From contig RPRK01000018.1 in NCBI GenBank assembly GCA_003818495.1, positions 1-43,775 of the forward strand: DNA of 43,775 nt, written 5' to 3'. The DNA comes from Burkholderiales bacterium. Its GTDB lineage: Bacteria > Pseudomonadota > Gammaproteobacteria > Burkholderiales > Burkholderiaceae_E. Each line of letters begins with the position of its first letter. Position 1 is the first letter of the stretch. Below, one piece after another: positions 41,067-43,775 of the stretch. Made by a program: the position numbers and the translations under genes. The notes under the pieces are model-generated. The model saw only the letters and a program-made list of their open reading frames with translations. It did not search any database and was not told where the DNA came from.

Positions 41067-41088
41067 TCGGGCGGCGCGGGCCGCCCGA
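41067..41088 (+). terminator. Candidate stem-loop terminator after the Bug gene (no U tract)
   Basis: TCGGGCGGC-GCGG-GCCGCCCGA perfect 9-bp stem 14 nt after the stop codon. Confidence 0.4.
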
Positions 41089-41265
41089 TCGTCACGTTCA
41101 TCGCGGTCGCGCGACGTCACCGACCCCGGTCGGTCCGCGCGACCGCTCAGCGCTCGGCACCGATCACGTCAGCCGGAAGACGCACGCCAGGCGTGAATTC
41201 GTGCACGGACGCGTGCGCGGCATGGCACTTAGGCTCGCGGGTCAGGAACGACACCTACCCGCGCG

Positions 41266-43775
41266 ATGCCCTTCTTTCATGCTCCGTCCCGGTGCGCGAG
41301 CCCGCTGATCGCGGCGCTCGCCGTCGCCGCGGCGCTCGCGGGTTGCTCGTCGGGCAGCGATGTCGCGACGAGCGGCCCGAACGCCACGCCCACGCCGTCC
41401 GCCAACACCACCGCGGGCAGCACGGACGTCACTGCACTCGAGGTCCAGCGCGGCGTACCCACCATCGACCGCGGACTCGATGGCGACGCGGGGCGGACCG
41501 CCAAGAATTCCGGCACGGCGCCGGCGCGGGACGGCCAGTGGTCCGACGTGATCCCCTGGCCGCTCATCGCGATCCATGCGGCCCTGAACCCGGACGGCAC
41601 CGTCCTCACGTATGGCGCGGACGAGAACGGCCAGGAGAGCGGGCAACTCGAGTACGCGGTGTTCGATCCCTCGACGGGGCGGAACACCCTGCTTCCGAAC
41701 CTCACGAAGACCAACCTCTTCTGCAGCGCGCAGACGCTGCTGCCGTCGAGCGGACGCATGCTGCTCGCGGGAGGCGACATCCGCGGTACGGGGCAGGTGC
41801 TTCCGGACGGACAGCTCCTCACGAACCGCGGCGTGCGCGACGTGAACGTCTTCGACTTCCGGGACCGTAGCCTCGTCGGCACCGGTACCCCGATGGCGCG
41901 GCCGCGCTGGTACAACTCGCTGCTCACGCTGCCCGACGGGCGTCTGCTGACCCTGGGAGGCATCGACGACAAGGAGCAGTTCAAGGCGGTCGGCGAGGTG
42001 GAGGTGTTCACCGAGGGCCAGGGTTGGCGAACGCTGCAGAACGCGAACCTGTCGCTGCCCGGCAATGCCTGGTGGTATCCGCGGGCCTGGCTCACGCCGA
42101 ACGGGCGCGTCACGTTCATGACAGAGCACATCCTGCACTCGCTGGACCCCAACGGCGCCGGCCGGGTGTTCGATGCGGTGGGCACCCTGCCGTTTCCGTC
42201 GTGGATCAACCTCCCGGCCACGATGTTCGACCGTGGCCGCGTACTGATGCTGGGCCAGGGCGGGCAGGCCGCGGTCGTCGACCTGCGCGGTGACACGCCG
42301 ACCGCGACGCCGACCGGACGGACCGGCGACAACCGCTATTGGTCGACGCTGACGACGCTCGCCGACGGAAAGGTGCTGCTGACCGGAGGCGGCGCGCTCG
42401 ACGACCGGGGATACGACAACAGCGGCACGCGCGTCGCGCTCGCCGCATCGATCTGGGACCCGGCCACCGGAGCGTGGACCGACGGCGCGTCCGCGCAGAA
42501 GTCGCGCGAGTACCACTCGACGGCGATGCTGCTGCCCGATGCGACGGTGCTGGTGGGCGGCGGCGGTGCACCGGGTCCCGTTTCCCAGCTCAATGCCGAG
42601 ATCTATCGGCCACCCTACCTGTTCACCGCCTCCGGCGCCCCCGCGCCGCGGCCGCGGATCACCTCGGTCCCCTCGACGATCGCCCACGGGGAGTCCTTCG
42701 TGGTCGCGATGAACACCACCGCCCCGATCAAGCGGGTCACGATGGTCCGCGCCGGCTCGGTCACGCATTCGCTCGACGTGGAGCAGCGCTTCCTCGAACT
42801 CCCCTTCCGGCAGAACGGCAATCATCTCGACGCGCGACTCGACGCCGATGCGAACACCGCGCCCCCCGGCTTCTACATGGTGTTCGCGATCGACGCGGCC
42901 GGCGTGCCCTCGGTGGCGAAGATCGTGCGCGTGCCGGTGCCGCGCGCGACGGTGCCGCCCTCGGCGATGTTGGGCACCTCGATCACGAGCTTTGCCGGGA
43001 ACACCGCGATCGCGATGAACGGCGACGCGGACGTGTCGAACGACGGCGCGCTGCGCCTGACCTCCGCGAAGACGAGCCAGGCCGGCTCGGCCTGGTACCG
43101 CTCGCCGGTCACGCTGCTGCCGACGAGCTCGTTCGTCACGCGCTTCCAGTTCCGCATGGGCGGCGGCACGAACGGCGACGGCTTCGCGTTCGTCGTGCAG
43201 GGCAACGACACGATGGCGCTGGGCGGCGCCGGCGGCGCCCTCGGCTACGGCGGCATCGAACGCAGCATCGCGGTCAAGTTCGACGCGTATCAGAACGCCG
43301 GCGAGCCGAACGACAACCACATCGCCGTGCTGGTGAACGGCTCGATGGTCGCGATCGCGCCGACCCCGGCCCCGTTCCGGCTCGCCGACAACGCGGTCCA
43401 CACCGCGTGGGTGGTGTACGACGGCATCGGCAAGCGCCTCCTGGTGAATCTCGAGCAGGGCGCGACGAACGTCACCTCGACCTGGCCGGTCCTGACCGTG
43501 CCGCTCGACCTGCCCGCGATCGTCGGCGACGCGATGCTGATGGGCTTCACCGCCGGCACGGGCGGTGCGGTTCAGGAGCATCGGATCGAGCACTGGTCCT
43601 TCACCGCCGGCGTGGCCCCGGTGCCCGGTGCCGACAGCCTTCGGACCGACCGGATGCTGTTCCCGTGGCAGTCGCTGGTGTCCATCGGCGGGCAGTACTT
43701 CGCGCAGATGCAGCTCGACGGCAACTTCGTCGTCTACCGGAACGAGGGCGGCGGTGCCCGCCCGCTGTGGGCGAC
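41266..43775 (+). CDS. Galactose/glyoxal oxidase-like copper radical oxidase lipoprotein with legume-type lectin and bulb-type lectin domains (3' end truncated by window)
   Basis: Open frame from ATG 41266 to the window end (absent from the ORF track because no stop is reached). Lipobox ALAGC; kelch-like repeats (LPDGRLLTLGG, LADGKVLLTGGG); NLFCSAQT, RWYNSLLTLPDGR, REYHSTAMLLPD, SVTHSLDVEQRFLELPF; DUF1929-like region; FAGNTAIAMNGDADVSNDGALRLTS...FQFRMGGGTNGDGFAFVVQGN...LGYGGIERSIAVKFDAYQN...NHIAVLVNG (L-type lectin); MQLDGNFVVYRN (QxDxNxVxY). Confidence 0.88.
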   Translation, partial: MPFFHAPSRCASPLIAALAVAAALAGCSSGSDVATSGPNATPTPSANTTAGSTDVTALEVQRGVPTIDRGLDGDAGRTAKNSGTAPARDGQWSDVIPWPLIAIHAALNPDGTVLTYGADENGQESGQLEYAVFDPSTGRNTLLPNLTKTNLFCSAQTLLPSSGRMLLAGGDIRGTGQVLPDGQLLTNRGVRDVNVFDFRDRSLVGTGTPMARPRWYNSLLTLPDGRLLTLGGIDDKEQFKAVGEVEVFTEGQGWRTLQNANLSLPGNAWWYPRAWLTPNGRVTFMTEHILHSLDPNGAGRVFDAVGTLPFPSWINLPATMFDRGRVLMLGQGGQAAVVDLRGDTPTATPTGRTGDNRYWSTLTTLADGKVLLTGGGALDDRGYDNSGTRVALAASIWDPATGAWTDGASAQKSREYHSTAMLLPDATVLVGGGGAPGPVSQLNAEIYRPPYLFTASGAPAPRPRITSVPSTIAHGESFVVAMNTTAPIKRVTMVRAGSVTHSLDVEQRFLELPFRQNGNHLDARLDADANTAPPGFYMVFAIDAAGVPSVAKIVRVPVPRATVPPSAMLGTSITSFAGNTAIAMNGDADVSNDGALRLTSAKTSQAGSAWYRSPVTLLPTSSFVTRFQFRMGGGTNGDGFAFVVQGNDTMALGGAGGALGYGGIERSIAVKFDAYQNAGEPNDNHIAVLVNGSMVAIAPTPAPFRLADNAVHTAWVVYDGIGKRLLVNLEQGATNVTSTWPVLTVPLDLPAIVGDAMLMGFTAGTGGAVQEHRIEHWSFTAGVAPVPGADSLRTDRMLFPWQSLVSIGGQYFAQMQLDGNFVVYRNEGGGARPLWA

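What the first reader, a model, noticed from the sequence alone, without database searches (positions are those of the whole stretch)
41266..43775. Copper-radical-oxidase-like lipoprotein carrying two different lectin modules
Seen: the frame encodes a lipoprotein with kelch-like repeats and a DUF1929-like region. The five residues that build the galactose-oxidase active site have recognisable counterparts: Cys153 (NLFC, codon 41722) and Tyr216 (RWYNS, 41911) for the Cys-Tyr cofactor; Tyr416-His417 (EYHS, 42511) and His501 (VTHSLD, 42766) as copper ligands. They match C228/Y272/Y495/H496/H581 of fungal galactose oxidase by motif. After DUF1929 comes a legume (L-type) lectin-like domain, then a bulb-type lectin repeat with an intact QxDxNxVxY mannose-binding motif, cut by the window edge. 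Oxidase plus two unrelated lectin folds on one bacterial lipoprotein is an architecture I do not recognise; it suggests a surface-tethered, glycan-targeted oxidase producing H2O2 or aldehydes.
Basis: partly seen in the sequence, partly recalled or inferred. Interest (0 to 1): 0.87.

Follow-up and report, generated by a model that had tools for sequence, protein, structure and literature searches.

The report
Copper-radical oxidase lipoprotein with two lectins
A lake bacterium encodes a lipid-anchored copper enzyme, probably an aldehyde oxidase that makes hydrogen peroxide, whose tail carries two unrelated sugar-binding domains; this is a new combination of parts within a known kind of sugar-targeted oxidase.

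Summary
The frame at 41266 encodes a lipoprotein with a copper-radical-oxidase (CRO) domain. Its five catalytic residues align with galactose oxidase and GlxA and are invariant in 19 homologues. A strong L-type lectin domain and the start of a bulb-type lectin follow. The window is a whole contig, and its last 37 bases are the first 37 of contig C59. Joining them gives a complete 904-residue protein with three B-lectin repeats. A sister genome lacking the gene has the two flanks side by side, which supports the join.

Two corrections. The Trp directly before the cofactor Tyr (RWY), with no counterpart of galactose-oxidase Trp290, puts the active site in the GlxA/glyoxal (aldehyde) oxidase class, not the galactose oxidase class. 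Lectin-bearing bacterial CROs are also not unprecedented: relatives carry ricin-B, ConA-like, H-type lectin or discoidin domains, and same-genus paralogues combine a CRO with an L-type lectin. The L-type plus B-type pair was seen only in this gene: complete here, cut inside the B-lectin in one sister MAG; a third sister fragment ends before the lectins. Verdict: a real, probably functional new variant of a known kind. Substrate, sugar specificity and surface exposure are untested.

The parts
41266..43775 (+). CDS of the CRO-lectin lipoprotein, residues 1-836 of 904; the last 68 codons lie on contig C59 (stop ends at C59:242)
   Evidence: Open frame, 93% identical orthologue over 833 residues
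41266..41346 (+). Signal peptide with lipobox L24-A-G-C27; Ser at +2
   Evidence: Read directly from the sequence; no signal-peptide predictor was available
41521..42933 (+). Copper-radical-oxidase domain (kelch propeller plus E-set), residues 86-556
   Evidence: phmmer to 9g8h, 4unm, 1gof; model matches AA5 structures, TM 0.83 to 5c92 normalised by target
41722..41724 (+). Cys153, partner in the Cys-Tyr cofactor
   Evidence: Invariant in 19 homologues, aligned with Cys of galactose oxidase and GlxA
41908..41913 (+). Trp215-Tyr216: second-shell Trp in the GlxA/AA5_1 position, and the cofactor Tyr
   Evidence: Tyr216 invariant; Trp215 in 18 of 19; GlxA W288 and FgrAldOx W509
42511..42516 (+). 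Tyr416-His417, copper ligands
   Evidence: Invariant in 19 homologues
42649..42933 (+). GO-like E-set (DUF1929-like) domain, residues 462-556
   Evidence: Pfam PF09118, 1.6e-23
42766..42768 (+). His501, copper ligand from the E-set domain
   Evidence: Invariant in 19 homologues
42982..43611 (+). L-type (legume) lectin domain, residues 573-782; sugar-site Asp638 and Asn677 kept, metal-site Glu replaced by Lys671
   Evidence: Pfam PF00139 1.7e-33; alignments to 7elv and peanut lectin
43657..43775 (+). First part of the bulb-type (GNA-like) lectin domain, residues 798-836; two further repeats lie on C59
   Evidence: Completed tail matches 1npl at 7.9e-18; motifs at residues 816, 850, 881
43739..43775 (+). 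37-base overlap with the start of contig C59
   Evidence: Found only at these two contig ends in the genome
41085..41096 (+). Left copy of a 12-base direct repeat CCGATCGTCACG flanking the gene; right copy at C59:303-314
   Evidence: a near-identical single copy (TGATCGTCACG) at the empty site of G007

Best explanation
The gene encodes a secreted, lipid-anchored copper radical oxidase of the GlxA/glyoxal-oxidase class. Cys153 and Tyr216 would form the thioether-linked radical cofactor. Tyr416, His417 and His501, with the cofactor Tyr, would bind copper. The enzyme would oxidise aldehydes (or primary alcohols) with O2 and release H2O2. The C-terminal L-type lectin and the three-repeat B-type lectin would dock it on glycans, either on the cell's own envelope polysaccharide or on algal or plant-derived polymers, so that H2O2 or aldehyde chemistry happens at that surface. 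Shown: domain content, residue conservation, completeness of the protein and purifying selection. Inferred: cofactor formation, substrate class, sugar binding, membrane location and biological role.
For: Five catalytic residues aligned and invariant. GlxA-type Trp215-Tyr216, and no Trp at the galactose-oxidase 290 position. Oxidase model with pLDDT mostly 70-95 for residues 91-560 and a fold match to AA5 enzymes including GlxA, galactose oxidase and glyoxal oxidase 9n3u. Lectin matches. dN/dS 0.14 and 0.18. Recurrent attachment of unrelated lectin or carbohydrate-binding domains to related CROs. SCO1/SenC proteins, candidate copper-delivery factors, are encoded elsewhere in the genome.
Against: No catalytic or binding data. 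The L-lectin has Lys671 where legume lectins have the Mn-binding Glu, and Glu680 in place of an Asp, so its metal site is altered. The second B-lectin motif has His in place of Asn. No copper chaperone or glycan-synthesis gene is adjacent; the flanking genes are a Bug-type solute receptor and MarR/SDR/acyl-CoA genes. The specificity class rests on a single second-shell feature plus overall similarity, and galactose oxidase 9g8h is the best single match by E-value.
Confidence: 0.6

Rival explanations
1. It works like GlxA of Streptomyces: it acts on the producer's own surface glycan, and the lectins hold it to that polymer, so its role is envelope or extracellular-matrix maturation rather than attack on foreign polymers.
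For: GlxA-type active site. GlxA acts in cell-wall morphogenesis with a cellulose-synthase-like protein, and fbfB of Stigmatella is needed for fruiting bodies (PMC13094651 and PMC3543389). The lipid anchor keeps the enzyme on its own cell.
Against: No glycan synthase or export gene next to it. The gene is absent from sister species such as G007, G001 and G005, which fits an accessory trait better than core morphogenesis.
Confidence: 0.3
2. It is a galactose (primary-alcohol) oxidase proper, oxidising the C6 hydroxyl of glycans that the lectins bind.
For: The best single solved match is a bacterial galactose oxidase from Pseudoarthrobacter (9g8h/9g43). All first-shell residues are shared.
Against: It has RWY rather than RGY at the cofactor Tyr, and the Trp290 position is not Trp. 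In the same genome the C22 paralogue does carry the galactose-oxidase pattern (RGY and GGSW), so the two types are separate.
Confidence: 0.2
3. The oxidase fold is retained only as a scaffold, and the protein is a multivalent adhesin without catalysis.
For: Two lectin modules; kelch folds without catalysis are common.
Against: All five catalytic residues and the second-shell Trp are intact and conserved, with oxidase dN/dS 0.14, lower than in the lectin part.
Confidence: 0.05
4. The architecture is an assembly artefact: the B-lectin end on C59 belongs to another gene.
For: The contig ends inside the gene, and the sister MAG breaks at nearly the same codon (residue 833).
Against: The 37-base overlap is found only at these two ends. 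The frame continues and completes a three-repeat lectin. In G007, which lacks the gene, the two outer flanks are adjacent at consecutive bases. The L-type lectin and the first B-repeat lie inside the window contig anyway.
Confidence: 0.04

Closest known systems
GlxA of Streptomyces (4UNM), bacterial glyoxal/galactose-oxidase-like CRO
   Same: All five catalytic residues, and the Trp-Tyr (RWY) second-shell arrangement; cell-associated bacterial CRO
   Different: GlxA belongs to a Gram-positive genus, sits next to cslA and was described with kelch and E-set domains only; no lectin domains
Fungal AA5_1 aldehyde (glyoxal) oxidases, e.g. FgrAldOx (9N3U)
   Same: Second-shell Trp immediately before the cofactor Tyr; same copper ligands
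   Different: N-terminal WSC domains instead of C-terminal lectins; distant sequence
Galactose oxidase (AA5_2; 1GOF, and bacterial 9G8H/9G43)
   Same: Fold, first-shell residues and E-set; the Fusarium enzyme also carries a sugar-binding module (CBM32)
   Different: Trp290-type second shell absent here; binding module is an N-terminal discoidin-like CBM32
CRO with ricin-B domain in Paraburkholderia sprentiae, Caballeronia zhejiangensis and genome G957
   Same: Bacterial CRO joined to an unrelated lectin fold
   Different: Ricin-B trefoil instead of L-type plus B-type; the two plasmid genes sit beside an SCO-family gene
1870-1877-residue paralogues in the same genus (L033, L034, L035; probably C39 with C69 in this genome)
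   Same: CRO and L-type lectin domain on one chain
   Different: Also PKD, beta-propeller and di-haem cytochrome segments; no B-type lectin; L-lectin only about 37% identical

Membership tests
Copper radical oxidase (CAZy AA5) | Kelch propeller plus E-set fold | tested here: met
   Pfam PF09118; model matches AA5 structures at E about 1e-40
Copper radical oxidase (CAZy AA5) | Cys and Tyr of the thioether cofactor | tested here: met
   Cys153 and Tyr216 aligned with solved enzymes and invariant
Copper radical oxidase (CAZy AA5) | Tyr-His and His copper ligands | tested here: met
   Tyr416, His417, His501 aligned and invariant
Copper radical oxidase (CAZy AA5) | Residues converge at one site in space | tested here: inconclusive
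Copper radical oxidase (CAZy AA5) | Copper-dependent oxidation with H2O2 release | not testable with these tools
   Needs the purified protein
GlxA / AA5_1-type aldehyde oxidase | Second-shell Trp directly before the cofactor Tyr | tested here: met
   Trp215-Tyr216; GlxA W288 and FgrAldOx W509
Galactose oxidase (AA5_2) | Stacking aromatic residue at the Trp290 position | tested here: not met
   GGID here against GGSW in galactose oxidase and in paralogue C22
L-type (legume) lectin | Match over the family's curated cut-off | tested here: met
   PF00139 116.7 bits against 26.3; PF18483 98.1 against 78.3
L-type (legume) lectin | Sugar-site Asp, Gly and Asn | tested here: met
   Asp638, the Gly-rich loop 656-663 and Asn677 align with peanut lectin; binding itself not tested
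L-type (legume) lectin | Ca/Mn ligands Glu, Asp, Asn, Asp, His | tested here: not met
   Lys671 replaces Glu and Glu680 replaces Asp; Asp673, Asn677 and His685 kept. Some relatives also depart
Bulb-type (GNA-like) lectin | Three sequence repeats with QxDxNxVxY | tested here: met
   Repeats at 816, 850 and 881; two motifs intact, one with Asn to His; 1npl 7.9e-18
Bulb-type (GNA-like) lectin | Match to Pfam B_lectin PF01453 | tested here: not met
   No match at E<=1 for the full protein, although the sequence match to solved members is strong
Bacterial lipoprotein | Signal peptide with lipobox Cys | tested here: met
   LAGC ending at Cys27 by inspection; no predictor run; export to the cell surface not testable

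The most novel reading that the evidence does not exclude
The protein is a glycan-homing aldehyde/alcohol oxidase whose two lectins select a particular foreign surface (for example an algal or cyanobacterial coat) and deliver H2O2 or aldehyde cross-linking there. It would be one of a set of bacterial CROs whose lectin tails have been swapped to aim the same chemistry at different glycans.
Probability: 0.2. Interest if true: 0.6.

Novelty: new variant of a known kind. Interest (0 to 1): 0.4.

Why it matters
Copper radical oxidases are used to tag and modify glycans, and bacterial ones are poorly explored. This gene gives a natural CRO with two unrelated C-terminal lectin folds and a GlxA-type active site. 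Together with its relatives it shows that bacteria attach many different lectin and carbohydrate-binding folds to this oxidase. If the lectins set the target, the family is a ready collection of aimed oxidases, and it makes testable whether bacterial CROs act on defined surface glycans or on small aldehydes.

Tried and rejected
Pfam B_lectin: no match, so the tail was tested against solved structures. Lectin searches in viral contigs found no relatives. The first genome-contig scan found only the 93% orthologue, a Leucothrix CRO and a Dyella B-lectin. Structure prediction of the lectin part failed for lack of related sequences (pLDDT below 50 from residue 561), so the lectin folds rest on sequence matches. 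A second structure job was not used for the same reason. Promoter and terminator scans near the start found nothing; the sigma-70 consensus is a poor guide in a 71% G+C genome. Searches of papers for galactose oxidase with legume lectin, with MauG, or for a two-lectin architecture found nothing relevant. A 37-base overlap was sought between C39 and C69 but none exists, so that join rests only on the intact sister protein. A tree of the oxidase domains was considered and left out, because full reference sequences were not at hand. The idea that the gene is part of the neighbouring acyl-CoA operon was rejected: that operon runs beyond a MarR gene on the opposite strand and is present without the oxidase in G007.

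Full report
What was checked. The frame 41266-43775 is open to the end of the window and reads 836 residues. The window is a complete contig (C14) of a draft Burkholderiales genome of 572 contigs. Its last 37 bases are identical to the first 37 of contig C59 and occur nowhere else in the assembly. Reading on in frame gives a 904-residue protein with its stop at C59:242.

Independent support for the join. Sister genome G007 lacks the gene. There the bases corresponding to window 41053 and C59:305 are consecutive (L092:3419 and 3420), so the two contigs flank one site. The gene is thus present or absent as a unit of about 3 kb between a Bug-type solute-receptor gene and a MarR gene. A 12-base direct repeat, CCGATCGTCACG, lies at both ends (41085-41096 and C59:303-314). 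The G007 junction has one near-identical copy, TGATCGTCACG. This fits gain or loss by recombination at short repeats; the direction is not established.

Oxidase domain. Residues 82-556 match galactose oxidase 9g8h (1.4e-39), and the oxidase region also matches GlxA. Cys153, Tyr216, Tyr416, His417 and His501 align with the cofactor and copper ligands of the solved enzymes. They are invariant in 19 homologous domains from this family of bacteria, Leucothrix and the paralogues. An AlphaFold2 model from nine sequences has pLDDT mostly 70-95 for residues 91-560. Its best structural matches are AA5 enzymes, with TM 0.83, normalised by the target, to the catalytic-domain-only alcohol oxidase 5c92. 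Distances between the five residues were not measured.

Which kind of oxidase. In galactose oxidase the radical is stabilised by Trp290. In the fungal aldehyde oxidase FgrAldOx and in GlxA the Trp comes from another position (W509, W288) and is flipped (PMC13094651). In FgrAldOx that Trp immediately precedes the cofactor Tyr (W509, Y510). The window protein has Trp215-Tyr216 (RWY), as GlxA does in the alignment, and GGID where galactose oxidase has GGSW. It is therefore assigned to the aldehyde/glyoxal oxidase type. That assignment is an inference from sequence.

Lectin domains. Residues 573-782 match Lectin_legB at 1.7e-33, the solved lectin 7elv at 2.6e-22 and peanut lectin at 2.4e-15. The sugar-site Asp638 and Asn677 are kept, but the usual Mn-binding Glu is Lys671, also in the orthologue. 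The tail (798-904) is a bulb-type lectin: 1npl at 7.9e-18, with motifs at 816, 850 (altered) and 881. The Pfam B_lectin model does not match.

Anchoring. The N-terminus ends in LAGC with Ser next, as in outer-membrane lipoproteins; this is read by eye. Whether it faces outwards is unknown.

Selection and distribution. Against the 93%-identical orthologue (G011, the same record as L030, Loclat bin-06114), dN/dS is 0.14 for the oxidase and 0.18 for the L-lectin. A third species (G009) has a 91%-identical fragment that ends at residue 415, before the lectins. Thus the L-type plus B-type pair is seen complete in one genome, partly in G011 (cut at residue 833, inside the first B-repeat), and is unproven in G009. 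No other genome in the family sample (74), the order sample (399, searched with the lectin part), or the class and phylum samples (369 and 399) showed an oxidase-plus-L-lectin match on this pattern. The class and phylum runs scored only two candidates per genome, so they could miss some.

The wider family. Related bacterial CROs carry ricin-B domains (Paraburkholderia, Caballeronia, G957), ConA-like Laminin_G_3 (G632), an H-type lectin (G019), and discoidin and PA14 domains (C22). In the same genus, 1870-1877-residue paralogues combine CRO, PKD, a beta-propeller, a di-haem cytochrome segment and an L-type lectin. The lectin tail appears to be an exchangeable part.

Conclusion. It is a new variant of a known kind: a lectin-bearing bacterial copper radical oxidase. 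Activity, substrate, sugar specificity, cell location and role are all untested.

Noticed in passing
L009:660-6572 (- strand, own contig C22); L033:1242-6869; L031:5758-13215 (Leucothrix pacifica); L036 with L008: Copper radical oxidase fused in one chain to a beta-propeller and a CCP/MauG-like di-haem cytochrome segment (two CxxCH each), an H2O2 maker beside a peroxidase-like domain. Fungi pair a CRO and a peroxidase as neighbouring genes (PMC9770985); no paper on this fusion was found. Possibly more unusual than the finding itself.
   Followed up: partly
L009:4893-6302 (own contig C22): The C22 paralogue has the galactose-oxidase pattern (RGY and GGSW), unlike the window gene, and an SCO1/SenC match lies just downstream (C22:25797-25997).
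   Followed up: partly
window 41085-41096 and C59:303-314; L092:3390-3430: The gene is a presence/absence unit flanked by a 12-base direct repeat, with an empty site in G007.
   Followed up: partly
L037, L038, L039 (G011:C67, G009:C160, G007:C77): Tandem arrays of two or three copper radical oxidase genes in sister species, some apparently broken.
   Followed up: no
L057-L063: Copper radical oxidase genes on contigs filed as viral in IMG/VR, some over 100 kb; whether these are viral or misfiled was not examined.
   Followed up: no
L083, L084: Ricin-B-bearing CRO genes on Paraburkholderia and Caballeronia plasmids lie directly downstream of an SCO-family gene, a likely copper-delivery partner.
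   Followed up: no
window 36.1-32.5 kb and 28.5-31.3 kb region: Peptide-transporter-like genes (substrate-binding protein, permeases, two ATPases) with two neighbouring amidohydrolase-like genes; seen in the ORF list only.
   Followed up: no
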